Assembly: GCA_016748015.1 (NCBI GenBank)
Contig: JAAOMT010000436.1
Coordinates: 566,354-630,353, forward strand
Direction of reading: 5' to 3'
DNA: 64,000 nt
Origin: Geosiphon pyriformis
Taxonomy: Eukaryota > Glomeromycota > Glomeromycetes > Archaeosporales > Geosiphonaceae
The notes under the pieces were generated by a model. It ran no database searches, had not been told where the DNA came from, and saw nothing but the letters and a program-made list of their open reading frames with translations. This document shows, piece by piece, positions 18,754-53,200 of this stretch. The first letter of the stretch is position 1. Every line of letters starts with the position of its first letter. A program made the position numbers and the translations under genes.

Positions 18754-19806
18754 TTAGAGCAGATAACATTTACTTCTTCCATAGATGGTTTGTGATGTAA
18801 TGTCCACATATCTGCAAAGCTGTGGAAAATTTGGAATGTGGTTTGGTAGTTGATCCTCAACTTTGGTGGTTAAATATCCAATGATGGTTCCCTTTGGTAT
18901 TTCAATGACTTTTCCAGTTGTGTTATAGATAGGAATTTTGATGTTTTTGGGGCTTTTGGCTGATATGTAAAGATTGGTGAGTCCAATCTCCTCTGATTTA
19001 CAAATGATGGCTTCTGCTTCAAATAATTGAGCTTGATTCTTTACTTTTTTTTTTATAGCTAACATATACTGGTCATATAGTGGAATAGAAATTGATTGAT
19101 GAGTTGAGATAATTTCTCTTTTGTCAACAATTTTTTCCTTTGCCATATTAATTGGTATGTCTATTCTACCCATTAATCCAAATCCCTGTATCTTTCTTGC
19201 AGTTATACTTAGTTCTTTCCTTTTTCTCACTGAAACTAACTGAGCTATTTTCACCAGAGATAAGAATATTGTCTGTACTATCTTTTCATTTGGTTCTATA
19301 ATATAGGCCTTTTCTGAATCATTTTGTAGCATGATAATGATATTTTCTATATATCTCGCATCAATTATTCCTCCTTTGATGTTGATTCCTTTTTTCATTA
19401 AACTACTTCTAGATGCTAGTTAAACTATAGTTGTTGTTGGAATTTCCAGAGCTATTTTGAGATCAATACATGTGTATGAATTTGGTTCCAATTTGATGAC
19501 TTCTTTTCCCAGATATCTCAAATCAAACTCTGTATTGGTATCATGTGTGCATTCTGGTATAATACTTTCATTATTATTACTATACCATTTGAGTTCTTGC
19601 TCCTTAGAGAGATCAGAAAGTGCAATGTATATTTTGGAGTTTGAATCAGAGTCTAAATTGTTGATATTTTTGTTGCCATATTGTGCAGAGCTAAAACTAA
19701 TGTTTTTGTTGTTATTGTTATCAGAGTTTGAATCGGGATTGAAAACTGATTCTAATTCTAATACACAGCTGTTGATTAATTCTTCTTCTGGGATCGTGTA
19801 GATCAT
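18754..19806 (-). pseudogene. G1 dUTPase domain
   Basis: dUTPase hydrolyses dUTP to dUMP and limits uracil in DNA; here it is encoded inside Pol between protease and RT. Motifs in order: I, TEFDLRYLGKE; II, SRSSLMKKG; III, GGIIDARYIENI with the Asp kept; IV, NEKIVQTIF; V, KIQGFGLMG. A TAA replaces Gln (VQLxSRSS) near 19419, splitting the frame. The N-terminal extension before motif I is Asn/Ser-rich. C-terminal to motif V comes a second ~150-residue linker ending near SKCYLL. Homologous to the G2 copy at 30613-31230. Confidence 0.85.
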
Positions 19807-24510: not shown

Positions 24511-25565
24511 GCGGAAACATTGATACCATGAACATTACACATCACAAATTTTCAAACAAAATCACTCATTGGGGAGAAAGAGAAGTAGACAATCCCAAAA
24601 CAGAGCACAAATAATCCAATCTTTCCAAGACAAATTCAACTGACACCTCTAAAGCCACCATCTTGGATTCTAATTTACCCATCTTGGTGGTTAAAACTTT
24701 AGAACTACTTGAACTAAGATTAGCAACTGAGTCTGTAATAACAACTGAAAGAGAGAAAAAAGAAGACGCCAGTGTTCTATCTAAAGCCATTTCTAAGTCC
24801 AAATTAGACACTACAGGTGCAAAGACAACCAGAGGAGGGACATGAAAATTGGATGCCAAAAGTACTAATTCCATAAAGCTCAATTTCGTTATAATAGCCA
24901 AAACCTGGTCTGTCAAAAGCTCCAAAGAGCATTCTAGAGAAACCAATTAATCAACCAAGCAGGAATTACCAAGAGAGTTAGAAACCAGCAAGCCAGATTT
25001 AGCACCTGAAAATGAACCAGTACAAAAAGGACCTGACAAAACCACACAAAAAGAATAACTGCTAGCAATCTGTGTCCAAGTCTTTCCACCAAAAGAAACT
25101 GGACAAACAATTGGTGCCTGTTTCTTCTTATATATGTTGGCCAAACAGACCTGATCCTGAGAAATTACCATCTGCTTACCACAAGCACCAGAATTCTCAC
25201 TCAATGAACACACTGTAGAGATATGACCCAATTGTTTACACTTGGTACAACAAGCCAGAGAAAAACCAGCCCAGCACAAATTTACATCTTTATAAACTGG
25301 AATAGAATTAATAGCAGCCAATTTGGATGTTTCATTTTTAAAACAGACCCCTGCATATCTGTTACATACATAAGAACTAGAATTGTGACCAATAAAACAG
25401 GTCTTTTCACCATATGATTCAAGTAAACCAGACAAATCATGAGCAGTGGTACCAATTGGTAAAGTATAGAGCAAACTCCTATGCTGATCCCTAAATATTC
25501 AAAATTGTTTATCTTCAATTGTCAAGACAACTCACACAGAATTCTTTCCCACAAAAACTGACCAT
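24511..25565 (-). pseudogene. LINE-B ORF1, C-terminal half and ORF2 first codons
   Basis: Between the G2 and G1 insertions. It reads LLYTLPIGTTAHDLSGLL, EKTCFIGHN, an intact zinc knuckle CTKCKQLGHISTVC, VCLANIYKKKQAPIVCPVSF, and a coiled-coil-like tail (SKMVALEVSVEFVLERLDYL) ending SLSPQ with the CAATGA overlap to ORF2. The first ORF2 codons follow to the G1 boundary, with TGA in place of the Trp before the endonuclease start. A TAA near 24947 splits the frame. Confidence 0.85.
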
Positions 25566-26533
25566 TGTTACCAGAGGTTTTTGGGTCTTTTTTCTTCAAT
25601 ATTGTTGATACCTGTTTACTGTGAATTCACGTTTTCTGGATGTGGTTGAACCTCCAGTAACTGAATTTATCTTCAAATTATCTCCTATAATTTGAACTGC
25701 TGGGCTTATAAGTGGAATGGCCAATTTTGTGCCAGTTACTTTGTATAGTTACATTGTAGTAAATGTCAACTCTTTCTCAGGAATTGCTTATCTGAAAGTT
25801 CACTAAAATGTGTAGTTACTTTGCTGTGAAAGTCAACTCTTCTACAGAAATCTTGTCTGTATGCTACTCTAATAATTGTAATAAGAAAATAAAAGAAAAA
25901 TAAAATAAATGTAAAAGAAAAAGTAAAACTGATGATTTATAGAAGTCGTTTTGGATCCAGGCCTGGAAGTGCTTTAACAGTCTTACTGAAATTGGTAGCT
26001 AATCAATTTCAAACTGTTAGTAAGGATTGATTAATTTCAAGAGAAATAATTTAAAAATTTGATTTTTCGAATTATTTGATATTTATTTTGTTTTTGTATG
26101 TAAAGGATGATTCTAATTATTAAATCTGAAGTAAGATACATTTCCTTGAAGAGAGAAGCTCTTCTTTTATACAACTTGTCATAACACTATTCTATGAACT
26201 TAAACTTTGCTATTTTCTATAATTTTGCTGAACTAATGATACATTTCAGCAAACTACAAGTTATTTCTGCAAACTATTAGATATTTCGGCAAATTTCTTA
26301 CAAATTTTGGTGAATTTTTTAAATGTTACATAATTTGGGGTATTGCATGATTGATCATCACAATTAGGTTACATTTGTGTTATGTACAAATTGAGTTATT
26401 AATTAAATGATAATTTCGGATATTTTGCTAATGTAATAAGTGATAATTTGAAATGATAATATATGCTAATTAATGATAAGATTTATAAGAGTAATTTCAT
26501 GCTAAACAATATCTTTAATTTCGTCTGGTAATA
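25566..26533 (-). repeat. G2 3' LTR (968 bp)
   Basis: Pairs with 33437-34390 and is related to the solo LTR at 51617 and the G3 LTR at 62318. Its right end reads TAATA where the other copies read TAACA, a C-to-T change. Confidence 0.9.
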
Positions 26534-30131: not shown

Positions 30132-31230
30132 TTAGCTCTTTGAGCTGGCTTCATTGTTGTGATTCAAGTTGTCCCATGTTAATTCGAGATAGTTTTTCCA
30201 TACCAACATAGTAGTTTTCAGAGCTAGGGTTTGGATTGATTTTTGATAGTGAATGTCCAATGATTTCCAAAAAATTGGTGACTGTTTGGGGTAATTTTTG
30301 TTGAAATATATTACTGTGAATAACTCCAATTTCTAAGTTATTTAATAAAACTATGGGGTAATTATTGGGGTTGTAAAAAGTAACTCGGACTTTCTTTGTT
30401 CTTTCTGGAATATAAATGTTTGAGATCAAAATATTATGTTCCAAGCAGACTTGTTTATTGGACTCAAAAATTTGTTGTGTGGTTGTTGGCTTTGGGCAGG
30501 TGTAGATTTTCGGATGTTCTCCAAAGGGTAAGATGGTAATTGGTTGTGGAAGTCTGAGAATCTGATGAGATTCATTCTGTGTGTTAAGAGCTATATTAAC
30601 TGGAACTGTGAATCATCCAGTTGAACCAAAACCTTGGGTTCCTCTATCACTTTTTCCTAATTTTTCTCTTTGATTGACTAGTTGCAAACCTGAAATGTTG
30701 ATTAGAAGTAGGTAAATAGCTTGGGCAATTTTTTCAGCATGGTTGATCTTGAATGGTTTGTTAGTTTCATTTTGAAGCATCACTGTAATGTCTCCAGTAT
30801 ATTCAGCATTGATTATTTCTCCTCTGACATTGATTTTTTTGCTTGCCAAAGAGGACCAGGAGACAATTTGAACCATTGCTCCTAGCGGGATTTCATGTGC
30901 AATTTTGAGGTTGATTTTTGTGAGAGATTTGGGTTTGAGAACAAGAGTATCCTTGTCTGAATATCTTAGGTCATATCCAGCATTAATTTCATGTGCTTTT
31001 TCGGGTTTTATTCCTTGTCCATTGTTGTTGAAGTATTTGAGTTGTAAGGCAGGCTGATTTTTAATAAGATAGATGGGTGTTGTTTCAATTTCTTCCATTG
31101 TTTTAGGTTCTCCAAATTCAATTTTGTTCTCATTACTTTTGCTAGACAAGGGGATTCTAAAAGCATAGCATTCAGGACACCACTGTTCATCACAAGGCAT
31201 AATGCATTTTTCACATAGCCTAATGTTCAT
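30132..31230 (-). pseudogene. G2 dUTPase domain and linker to RT
   Basis: Open at 31230-30613 (205 codons). It begins with the last zinc motif of the Cys-rich module, CEKCIMPCDEQWCPEC, then dUTPase motifs: I, NAGYDLRYSDKD; II, VSWSSLASKK, where the usual Arg of RSS is Trp (CGG to TGG); III, GEIINAEYTGDI, where the catalytic Asp is Asn; IV, AEKIAQAIYLL; V, RGTQGFGSTG, intact. The 30444-30132 stretch is the linker (VRVTFYNPNNYPIVLLNNLE) that leads into RT, after a stop at 30612. The two motif changes predict an inactive enzyme. Confidence 0.86.
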
Positions 31231-32913: not shown

Positions 32914-33413
32914 GCAATCTTTTTTTCAGTGGCCAGAGATTTCACAGTAATGGCAATTCTAGGCTGGTTATTAGAAAGTGGTGCAGAGTTATTTTGATTT
33001 CATCTTTGGGGAGTTTAATATCTTTGGGTTTGCTGTTATTGATTGGTAAAATAGCTTTCAACCTTCTTTGTCAGTTGGTCAATTTTCTCTTCAGCTACTG
33101 AGCTGGTTTCTTCAATTGCCAAATTTACAAGTTTTGTGTGATTGGTTTCTTCCATAGCCATTTCATATCTTTTTGCATGCTGTATGGCAGAGTTTAAATC
33201 TTTTGGGGCATGTGGGCGAACTTTTTTAATCAGTTTATCTTTTAGACCAGCGATAAATTAATCCAAGATTTGAGTGTCAGAATAATAATCATTAGTTTCA
33301 AGTTGGCGAATTTGTCTGAGAAGTTTGTTGAATTTTCTAATATAAGTCATGACAGATTCGGAGGGTTCTTGTTTAATATTTCAAAAACGATTGCAAAGAG
33401 TGATGGAGGTATT
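32914..33413 (-). pseudogene. G2 Gag, C-terminal part only
   Basis: Reads KQEPSESVMTYIRKFNKLLR, RQLETNDYYSDTQILD, FIAGLKDKLIKKVRPHAPKD and AIQHAKRYEMAME, a standard retrotransposon Gag capsid block, then a zinc knuckle at 32914-32955 (CHYCEISGH-stop-KKDC, Trp to stop) in another frame. The N-terminal half of Gag, the leader and the primer site are absent: the sequence ends at the adapter-like 19-mer. Confidence 0.75.
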
Positions 33414-33432
33414 AGATGTGTATAAGAGACAG
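33414..33432. other. Nextera/Tn5 mosaic-end adapter sequence
   Basis: AGATGTGTATAAGAGACAG, an exact 19-bp match to the mosaic end used in Nextera libraries. It sits between truncated Gag and 4 bases before the 5' LTR of G2, where a primer-binding site is expected. Best read as an untrimmed adapter that produced a chimeric join. Confidence 0.93.
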
Positions 33433-33436
33433 ATGC

Positions 33437-34390
33437 TGTTATCGGAGGTTTTTGGTCTCTTTTCTTCAATGTTGTTGATACCTGTTTGCTGTGAATTCAC
33501 GTTTTTGGGTGTGGTTGAACCTCCAGTAACTGAATTTATTTTCAAATTATCTCCTATAATTTGAACTGCTGGAATGGCCAATTTTGTGCCAGTTACTTTG
33601 TATAGTTACATTGTAGTAAACATCAACTCTTTCCCAGGAATTGCTTATCTGAAAGCTCACTAAAATGTGTAGTTACTTTGCTGTGAAAGTCAACTCTTCT
33701 ACAGAAATCTTGTCTGTATGCTACTCTAATGATTATAATAAGAAAATAAAAGAAAAATAAAAGAAATGTAAAAGAAAAAGTAAAACTGATAATTTATGGA
33801 AGTCATTTCGGATCCAGGCCTGGAAGTGCTTTAACAGTTTTACTGAAATTGGTAGCTAATCAATTTCAAACTGTTAGTAAGGATTGGTTAATTTCAAGGG
33901 AAATAATTTAAAAATTTGATTTTTCGAATTATTTGATATTTATTTTGTTTTTGTATATAAAGGATAATTCTAATTATTAAATCTGAAGTAAGATACATTT
34001 TCTCGAAGAGAAAAGCTCTTCTTTTATACAACTTGTCGTAACATTATTCTATAAACTTGAACTTTGCTATTTTCTATAATTTTGTTGAACTAATGATACA
34101 TTTCAGCAAACTACAAGTTATTTCTGCAAACTATTAAATATTTTGGCAAATTTTTTACAAATTTCAGCAAACTTTTTGAATGTTACATAGTTTGGGGTAT
34201 TGCATAATTGATTATCGCAATTAGGTTACATTTGTGTTATGTACAAATTAGATTATTAATTAAATGATAATTTCGGATATTTTGCTAATGTAATAAGTAA
34301 TAATTTGAAATGATAATATATGCTAATTAATAATAATATTTATAAGGATAATTTCATGCTAAACAATATCTCTAATTTCGTCTGGTAACA
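33437..34390 (-). repeat. G2 5' LTR (954 bp)
   Basis: From TGTTATCGGAGG to GGTAACA, followed by CCAT. Near-identical over long stretches to 25566-26533. The end that faces the element interior is flanked by ATGC plus adapter instead of an internal leader. Confidence 0.88.
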
Positions 34391-35466
34391 CCATTTAGAA
34401 GCAACTGAACTAGCTACTTCAGATGATTCATATTTGACCAAAGCTTTTTGCCACAAGCCAATCAATTGCATCTTAATTGACACAATTTTTTCAAACTTAG
34501 AAAACACAAATTCCACAGCCAATTTGGAAAAATCAACTGGGATCTTCTTAATGATCACTTTCCAATCTGAACAACTGTTTACTTTCCTTATCTCATCATT
34601 GACAAAAATTTTCTCACAGATTGCTATTTCTTTAGCCTTATTCAAGTTCAATTTCGAAGTAAATGAAGATCTGATGATCCCTGGAAATTTTGAGAGAGCA
34701 GAGGCTTCTCCAAAACCATCAACTCAATAAAAAATTTTTTTTATTGAAATCAATTTGTCACTAACAGATTTTCCTGGAATAGCCAAAAGCTCAATATCTA
34801 GCATAAAAGATTTTACTGGCTTGAAGTTTCTTTTTTCCAAAACACGTGACTTGAAACTTGGCAGCTGATTAAAATTTTTAAACTTAGGAAGTGGAACAGC
34901 CACCATATTCTCATCACCACTCAAAACATCAAACAAAGGAGGTTTCGAAGGTTGACCTAATACATACATACAAGTGTGTGTTTTTCTGGACGTGGTATTG
35001 TCTTCCATGCCATCAATTACTGAATTGTCCAAGTTAGTGTAACTAGTTTCTTCAGCAACAGTATTTTTTATGTTTTCTAAGTCTGACAGGCCACCCATGC
35101 TATTTGCTTTGCTTTCTATTTCACTGCCCCAAGATTTTGAAAACTTACTGTCAATGACACCAATATTAGCCAGGCCCAACAGTCTAGCAGACAAGTCAAC
35201 CACACTGACTCCAACTTTAGAATTTCTTGGCTTCTTGTAAGATGCACTGCATGAGTACACACTATTTACTCTTTTTTTTTCATATCAGGCTGGTTCCCCA
35301 ATTTAGCAGAAGTAGATCCAGAGCCACCAACAATAGGATTTGCCAGTTCTATGTTCACAAATAAAGGTACATCTGAAGAAATAGTTAAAATACGAAAAGA
35401 ATAAGGAGTAAGAGAAACTTTTTCTTCGATAATATTTTGCTCTCGTTGTGACCAGGGGATCAACAA
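34391..35466 (-). pseudogene. LINE-B ORF1, N-terminal half
   Basis: Starts near 35466 (MLIPWSQREQNIIEEK) in the 5' leader region shared with LINE-E (minus-strand GTT(G/A)ATCCCCTGG). A frameshift in an eight-base T run at 35272-35279 leads to the 178-codon frame 35260-34724 (KPRNSKVGVSVVDLSARLLG, MYVLGQPSKPPLFDVLSGD, FKPVKSFMLDIELLAIPGKS). A TGA follows IKKIFY, then the RRM-like block with SIKMQLIGLWQKALVKYE ends at ASKW, where G2 interrupts it. Confidence 0.84.
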
Positions 35467-50204: not shown

Positions 50205-53200
50205 CTACATGTCTATATGAACTAAAACCATACTATCTAGATCTGAAAAAAACTGACAAAAATTATGATAACCAAAACCAACACTAAAAGTGTCAGCAAT
50301 ATTCAACAATTTAATTACACTAGCAGAAAGTACTGAAGAAAGCCCAAATACTGAAACTGGAACAGATCCATCATGTGGAATTAGTCTGTTCTTCTCCATA
50401 AATGCCTGATGTTTGACATAGACCAACTAAATCTCCTTCCTAAATGCAAGACCAAATCTGTGCACAAAGTCTACAACTGTCCAACCTGCAATTTTAGAAT
50501 CATTGAAAGTAGAAAGAGACTTCTGATACCAATTATTTAAGACAAAACTCTTGCACAGAGCCACACAAATGGCAACATTAGAAGAACAAGAGTTCAAAAA
50601 TTGTGACACACATAAGACTGAGTAAAACAAACCAGAAATTACCCTCCATTCAGTTGCATAGGTGTCCAGCAACCAAACATGAACATCAGAATCAAATAAG
50701 CAAAAGAAAGCATGATTTGAGACCTCAATATCCCTACAAAACAAACATATTACACTCAGATAACTCTTGACATACAAATGTTTATAAACAGTGACAGGAA
50801 GCTGGTAGTACAAAGCCTTTATAAAATAAGTGCAAATATTAGCAGTATTCCTACTAGTAAAGTCAAAGGCCAAATACAAATCAGAATGCCATACCAAAGA
50901 TAACCTAAACCAATCAATGTCTATACACAAAAAGTTCACCACAACTTGGAAACCAGAGCCAATTTTTTAGCATGCCCGATAGACAGACTGAAATATATTA
51001 TGAACAAAATGTCTAGAATTAGTAGAAACAACTCCACTGCTAGCCCTAATATAACACTTGGCAATACAATAAAGAAGATACTGATTAGAGGTACAAGCAG
51101 TCTTCACAAAAGTATTAGCATGCTTATTGTCCAAGACACCCAAATAATCCTTAACCTTATGTCAACTGACCTCCAAACTCTTTTTATGAATAACACCCAC
51201 AATATAATGATGCTCAATCCAACACCAATTTTGAAAGTTAGGACACAACAAGTCTAACTCCAATTTACAAGCATCCAGAGCAAACTGATTGTCTGAGAAA
51301 ATTTGAACTAAACTAGAAGAAAGAACACACTCAAGTGTCAGAGCAACAACTTGTAGTTTAATTATGGTAGAGGACACCAAACCAGAAACTTCTACACCCA
51401 AACCCAAATCAATATTCTCAAAAAAAACTGCCATGCCAGCCTTCATGTTAAGAGTACCCAAACTGCATAGAGATCTATTTGTATAAACAAAAAGACAACC
51501 AGTATCAACACCCAACAAATGCTTATGAACAATTCCAAATTCATGTGATTCAAGAATGTTCAATGAAACAATGCCCACCAAATGAGAAAAACAAATAGAA
51601 AGAGAAGGGACACCATTGTTACCAGAGGTTTTTGGTCTCTTTTCTTAACTGTTGGTAATGTTGATTTGCTGTGAATTCACGTTTTCAGGAAGTAGTTGAA
51701 CCTCCAATAACTAAATTTATCTTCAAATTATCTCTTATAATTTGAACTGCTGGGCTTATAAGTGGAATGGCCAATTCCTTGCCAGTTACTTTATGTAGTT
51801 ACATTGTAGTAAATGTCAACTCTTTCCCAGGAATTGTTTGTCTGGAAGCTTACTAAAAATGTGTAGTTACTTTGCTGTGAAAGTCAACTTTTCTACAGGA
51901 ATCTCGTCTGTAGGCTATCCTAATGATTGTAATAAGAAAAATAAAAAAAAATAAAAGAAATGTAAAAGAAATAGAATTTTGTCAAGAGAAACGTTTTCTA
52001 TCCAGGCCTGGAGTCACTAACAGTTTACTGAAATTGGTAGCTAATCAATTTCGAAATGTTAGTTGGGTTTTGGGGATTTTCCAAGTACAATAATTAAAGA
52101 ATTTGGTTTTTCGAATTATTTGATATTTATTTCTTTTTGTGTGTATAAGAATGGTTTTTAAGAGATAAATCTAAAGTAAGATACATTTTCCAGAAGAGAA
52201 AAGCTCTTTTTTTATACAACTTGTTGTAGTACTAGTTTATGAACTTGCACTTTTTCTCTTTGCCCAAATTCTGGCAAACTAAAGATACATTTTGATGAAC
52301 TACAAGTTATTTTGCTGAACTATTGATTAATTTGGATGAACTATTCATAATTTCGGCGAATTTCTGTAAATTTCAGCGAATTTCTTATAAATTTCGGCAA
52401 ATTTCTGTAAATTTCGGCGAATTTTTGAATGTTACAAAGTTCAGGGTATTGTGTAATTTGATCATCTTACTTTCTGTTATACTAATTAGATTATTTTAAT
52501 TGAATCGTGATATGTGATAATTGATTAAATAATAAATAATAATTTGAAATGATATTAATATACTAATGAATTATAGAAATTATAAGAGTAATTTCATGCT
52601 AATTAATAGCTAAAATTCTACTGGTAACACCATTAAGAAAATGCACAAAAAGCTCAAACCATTTAGGAATTGGGCCATGAAAGTCCAATCTCTTCTACTG
52701 CTTAAATGTTTTTCAATCAAAAACTGCACCAGCATAATTGCAAAGCTGCTCAGCAAAAACAATCTTATATTGTTAAAGCAAAGAGACACATTTGTAAAAC
52801 TTAGGACCACCGAGAACAAAAGACAAAGAGATACCACCTCGGAAACAAAAAACATTAGTCACAAGACCACCCAGAAACAGATCACATTCCAGAAAAATGC
52901 AAACTACACCAGTTAAAAAATTATTTGATGAATTAACATTATCACAAAAAAGAAAAAGCAAGGAATAACAAGGATTCCAGCTGAGCACTTGCAAATTATG
53001 TGATCTATGCGCAAACAGACAACTCAGAATGCCAACTGAATTTGAAAACCAAACAATAGAAGCCAACTTGCTCTCAGCTTGAATCTGTTCAAAAGTTTTT
53101 AAATTATATAATAAGGAATGGTGAAATACATCATTAAGAAAGTTATAAGGAAGACCAGATTTGGACTTCAAGCCTTTGTAAATCAAAGTGTCTTACTTAT

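What the first reader, a model, noticed from the sequence alone, without database searches (positions are those of the whole stretch)
33414..33432. Nextera mosaic end embedded in G2: assembly chimera
AGATGTGTATAAGAGACAG is an exact 19-mer match. On the minus strand the LTR end plus GCAT runs into CTGTCTCTTATACACATCT, the usual read-through orientation. The Gag N-terminus, leader and primer site are missing at exactly this point. The G2 length and this LTR junction should not be trusted.
Basis: seen in the sequence. Interest (0 to 1): 0.85.

Follow-up and report, generated by a model that had tools for sequence, protein, structure and literature searches.

The report
Sequencing adapter left in fungal assembly
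A 19-base piece of a laboratory sequencing adapter sits inside a mobile element in this fungal genome assembly, at a place where about a thousand real bases are missing; it is an artefact, one of about a hundred such scars in the assembly.

Summary
The Tn5/Nextera mosaic end (ME) is exact at 33414-33432. The same assembly (124.7 Mb, 406 contigs held; recognised as Geosiphon pyriformis) holds 99 exact copies and none of the reversed control, plus 3 with an 18-nt core. All 99 sites differ in their flanks; the inner side of the ME carries the Tn5 target bias (0 of 2000 random sets reach it), the outer side does not (596 of 2000 do), and no site has a target duplication (0 of 99). This is a tagmentation remnant, not biology. 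In 6 of 7 native copies examined, 994-1021 bp lie between the window's gag edge and the LTR, so gag N-terminus, leader and primer site are missing here. Of 30 sites that could be measured, 26 have lost 297-2368 bp of collinear sequence. One correction: the bases GCAT are not the element's own internal start; the right-hand piece probably came from another LTR copy. How the pieces were joined (contig ends butted together) is inferred; the assembly paper is not held. Low interest, useful as a quality warning.

The parts
33414..33432 (+). Tn5/Nextera mosaic end, 19 bases, adapter remnant at a false join
   Evidence: exact match; 99 copies in the assembly, reversed control 0
33114..33413 (-). left side of the join: inner part of gag of the retrotransposon; its upstream part is missing
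   Evidence: 39 non-self hits listed at 90-92% identity; native copies continue for 994-1021 bp to the LTR
33433..33436 (.). ATGC, first bases of the tagmented fragment; resembles the outer host-side edge of an LTR, not the primer-site junction
   Evidence: 6 of 6 native 5' junctions read GAGCACCAAA|TGTTA; ATGC|TGTTA copies have unrelated upstream DNA
33437..34390 (-). LTR in 5' position, 954 bases; junction-near part possibly from another copy
25566..26533 (-). 3' LTR of the same element, 968 bases
25562..25565 (.). CCAT, 4-bp target duplication, copy 1
34391..34394 (.). CCAT, 4-bp target duplication, copy 2

Best explanation
The 19-mer is the double-stranded core of a Tn5 (Nextera-type) adapter that entered reads by tagmentation and was not trimmed. 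The DNA on its 3' side (ATGC plus LTR) is the start of a tagmented fragment; the DNA on its 5' side (gag) was not its natural neighbour. At assembly a contig end capped by an ME-bearing read was butted against a neighbouring contig end inside a repeat, and the real sequence between (about 1.0 kb here: gag N-terminus, leader, primer site) was dropped. Shown: adapter identity, recurrence, Tn5 bias on one side only, loss against related copies. Inferred: that the join was made by assembly or gap-closing software and not in a molecule, and that the right-hand read came from another copy's outer LTR edge.
For: 99 exact copies, reversed control 0, where chance would give well under one. All 99 flanks differ; inner side mean Tn5 motif 3.64 of 7 against 2.71 random (0 of 2000 sets), outer side 2.78 (596 of 2000). 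No target duplication, 0 of 99. Native copies: 994-1021 bp at this place in 6 of 7. Other sites: 33 of 34 linked pairs on the same strand, 26 of 30 measured joins lose 297-2368 bp, median over the 30 is 491. No overlap between ME and native continuation in most cases, so joins are blunt: 0-2 matching bases in 35 of 38 left and 32 of 32 right junctions. Runs of N of 20, 68, 132 and 396 bases in fetched loci fit a scaffolded assembly, if they are gaps and not withheld letters.
Against: The joining step was not observed; no reads and no assembly methods were available. Four measured joins step backwards (-140, -266, -855, -4010). 14 sites had no common subject. Nothing explains why no loss falls between 0 and 296 bp. 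The window site alone scores only 3 of 7 for the Tn5 motif, so that argument rests on the set. Two sites (L046, L108) share the same left end at 98% over 120 bases, which is odd if left ends are random; it would fit one contig end used twice.
Confidence: 0.97

Rival explanations
1. Chimeric molecules: during library making a broken DNA end was ligated, or carried by polymerase jumping, onto an ME-bearing fragment end, and the assembler used such reads. Still an artefact, but made in the tube.
For: It explains a Tn5-like inner side and a featureless outer side. The L046/L108 shared left end could be one chimeric unit in a repeat.
Against: Unlinked molecules should give both orientations and unlinked loci; 33 of 34 linked pairs are same-strand and most lose 0.3-1 kb. 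No microhomology.
Confidence: 0.25
2. Nextera mate-pair circle junction: the two ends of one long molecule were joined through the ME.
For: Reads cut at one half of a double junction would end exactly at the ME outer end, as seen in 99 of 102 sites (the trimming idea is from memory). Four joins step backwards.
Against: A circle junction must step backwards by the insert length; 26 of 30 measured joins step forwards. No back-to-back double junction in the held letters.
Confidence: 0.05
3. A natural mobile element of the fungus ends in this 19-mer.
For: Many copies in both orientations.
Against: The ME is an engineered hybrid of the two IS50 ends (recalled). Copies share nothing beyond the 19 bases and have no target duplication, 0 of 99; only one close pair of inverted copies was seen, 20 bp apart. 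No transposase search was run.
Confidence: 0.005

Closest known systems
Tn5/Nextera mosaic-end adapter remnants in assemblies
   Same: Exact 19-mer, scattered sites, Tn5 target bias on the inner side.
   Different: No outer adapter tail in the held letters, and the scar marks a collinear loss, median 491 bp over 30 measured joins.
Nextera mate-pair single junction adapter (recalled)
   Same: A lone 19-mer between two genomic pieces.
   Different: 26 of 30 measured joins run forwards, not backwards.
Fungal LTR retrotransposon with a dUTPase stretch, such as PosPlaTy3-5 (PMC2864245, passages seen)
   Same: Protease-like, dUTPase-like and RNase H stretches in that order, paired LTRs, 4-bp target duplication.
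   Different: Host is Geosiphon; element clade was not tested; its 5' internal part is missing in this assembly copy.

Membership tests
Tn5/Nextera adapter remnant | exact mosaic-end 19-mer | tested here: met
Tn5/Nextera adapter remnant | unrelated flanks at scattered sites | tested here: met
   99 distinct flank pairs of 99
Tn5/Nextera adapter remnant | Tn5 target preference next to the 3' end of the ME | tested here: met
   3.64 against 2.71, 0 of 2000 random sets; background drawn from the held letters
Tn5/Nextera adapter remnant | present in raw reads, absent from adapter-free DNA | not testable with these tools
   no reads available
Nextera mate-pair circle junction | backward step of insert length between the flanks | tested here: not met
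   26 of 30 measured joins step forwards
Natural IS50/Tn5-like transposon end | 9-bp target duplication | tested here: not met
   0 of 99 sites have 9 flanking bases alike with up to 1 mismatch, 0 of 99 have 4-12 identical bases
Natural IS50/Tn5-like transposon end | transposase gene between paired ends | not tested
   no transposase search was run

The most novel reading that the evidence does not exclude
The 99 to 102 ME scars are only the labelled part of a larger set of zero-gap collapses in this reference genome: contig ends without an ME may have been butted together in the same way, dropping 0.3-1 kb of repeat without a trace, so that element lengths and broken frames in the Geosiphon assembly are biased throughout. 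Not tested here.
Probability: 0.35. Interest if true: 0.3.

Novelty: not a real feature. Interest (0 to 1): 0.15.

Why it matters
By protein names and contig lengths the assembly is that of Geosiphon pyriformis, a genome used in studies of early arbuscular mycorrhizal fungi. At least 99 false joins, many of them in LTR elements, can be found by a simple 18-mer screen. Gene models and element catalogues that cross these points should be distrusted.

Tried and rejected
Mispriming of a strand ending in ACATCT on native AGATGT: native sequence after the left flank shows 0-2 matching bases in 35 of 38 sites; one has 3 (L104), and the two with 8 are L046 and L108 hitting each other's own ME, so they are not native. 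Rejected.

Tn5 insertion with target duplication: 0 of 63, 0 of 99. Rejected.

Mate-pair circle junction as the join: most joins run the wrong way. Rejected; it stays possible as the source of the reads.

A switch of copy inside the window's 5' LTR: the first 60 bases after the ME differ from L128 at 2 columns and from G2's 3' LTR at 10 (4 of these are the ATGC/CCAT edge). In the 14 blocks from 33553 to 34392 the 3' LTR is closest in 9, ties with L128 in 1, and L128 is closest in 4. Suggestive at best; not claimed as shown.

Shared ends: L083 and L041 share a right start, L108 and L046 a left end. Tn5 hot spot, reused contig end or chance; left open.

Literature: the listings for mosaic ends in assemblies and for Geosiphon with Nextera showed nothing on this assembly; only titles and abstract starts were seen. 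PMC9453076, PMC11809032 and PMC2864245 were seen in passages. The Geosiphon genome paper was not held.

Full report
What is there. AGATGTGTATAAGAGACAG lies at 33414-33432 on the + strand, exact, and is the only match in the window with up to three mismatches. Both outer ends of the LTR pair are flanked by CCAT, so the outer ends fit one insertion.

Whole-assembly view. The 19-mer occurs 99 times in the 124.7 Mb held, 48 forward and 51 reverse; the reversed control gives none. The 5' 15-mer occurs 99 times and the 3' 15-mer 102 times; three extras, C125, C132 and C326, differ in the first base only. I read flanks at all 99 sites, 63 with long flanks and 36 with 120 bases a side: 99 distinct pairs. 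Two Nextera tails, a TruSeq and a P7 string (recalled) do not occur in the letters held.

Which side is the cut. The nine bases after the ME match the Tn5 motif (recalled) with mean 3.64 of 7 positions; random stretches of the held letters give 2.71, and 0 of 2000 random sets of 99 reach 3.64. The outer side gives 2.78, reached by 596 of 2000 sets. The inner side is therefore a tagmentation cut; the outer side looks arbitrary. The window site itself scores 3 of 7, so the argument rests on the set. There is no target duplication at any of 99 sites.

What is missing here. The gag edge 33114-33413 has 39 non-self hits listed at 90-92% identity (40 of 969 candidates scored). I fetched what follows in six of them and used L067 as a seventh. 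In six the LTR begins 994 (L069), 1011 (L070), 1021 (L071), 1020 (L072), 1011 (L073) and 1019 bp (L067) later; L074 showed no LTR match. For L073 the position of the gag edge rests on the fetch coordinates, as its 20-base overlap gave no hit of its own. Open frames of 130-278 codons run into the gag edge in L069, L071, L072 and L073; L070 showed none of 70 codons or more. The window copy itself has in-frame stops just after the join.

A correction at the LTR edge. In six of six native copies the base run before the LTR is GAGCACCAAA, the primer-site side (L069-L073, L067). The window has ATGC. Sixteen copies chosen for an ATGC-like edge have other, mutually unrelated DNA upstream by eye; being chosen for that edge, they show what such an edge is, not how common it is. 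One of them, L128, has at its far end the same run into the element as the window's 3' LTRs, so its ATGC lies outside the element. The right-hand piece next to the ME therefore most likely came from the outer edge of another LTR copy and was merged with G2's own LTR. The column counts fit this only in part (see Tried and rejected).

How the joins look in general. Among the letters held, 48 of 99 sites have relatives of both flanks reaching the junction; 17 more have one flank only. Of the 48, 33 lie on one subject on the same strand within 8 kb, 1 on opposite strands at 67-69% identity, and 14 have no common subject. Of the 33, 30 have no ME of the subject in between: 26 lose 297-2368 bp, four step backwards (-140, -266, -855, -4010); median of the 30 is 491. 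With 80% identity or more on both sides there are 24, median 491, three of them backward. The joins are blunt with respect to the ME. Linked, same-strand, forward losses point to neighbouring contig ends joined at assembly or gap closing, one end capped by an ME-bearing read. That step is inferred; why no loss falls between 0 and 296 bp is unexplained. Fourteen fetched loci hold runs of N (lengths), which may be scaffold gaps or withheld letters.

Whose genome. The dUTPase-like protein gave 338 hits; the 120 listed are all named Geosiphon pyriformis, and contig lengths in that list equal lengths seen here, for example 2339621 (C330), 2733912 (C370) and 2355860 (C354). Passages of PMC9453076 give for Geosiphon 129 Mb, 795 scaffolds and a largest scaffold of 2733.91 kb. 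The copy held has 406 contigs and 124.7 Mb, so part of it is not held.

Verdict. The confidence of 0.97 is for the artefact; for the contig-level join as against a chimeric molecule I would say about 0.65. It is not a biological feature.

Noticed in passing
30613-31230 (-), 18754-19398 (-): dUTPase-like stretches in two LTR-element regions (Pfam PF00692), between protease and RNase H in the first. Known from other fungal Gypsy elements (PMC2864245, passages); 338 relatives found, the 120 listed all Geosiphon.
   Followed up: partly
L016 (C134:56914-56971): The only close pair of inverted MEs seen: two MEs with outer ends facing, 20 bp apart.
   Followed up: no
about 33570: The 5' LTR lacks 12 bases that the six other LTR copies that were aligned over this place have; natural deletion or another join.
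   Followed up: no
51617-52629: An LTR flanked by CCAT on both sides, apparently a solo LTR.
   Followed up: no
L129, L130, L131: Three further scars with an 18-nt ME core; first base T or G in place of A; right-side Tn5 motif 5, 4 and 4 of 7.
   Followed up: partly
L046 and L108: Two sites share the same left end up to the ME, 98% over 120 bases, with different right flanks.
   Followed up: partly
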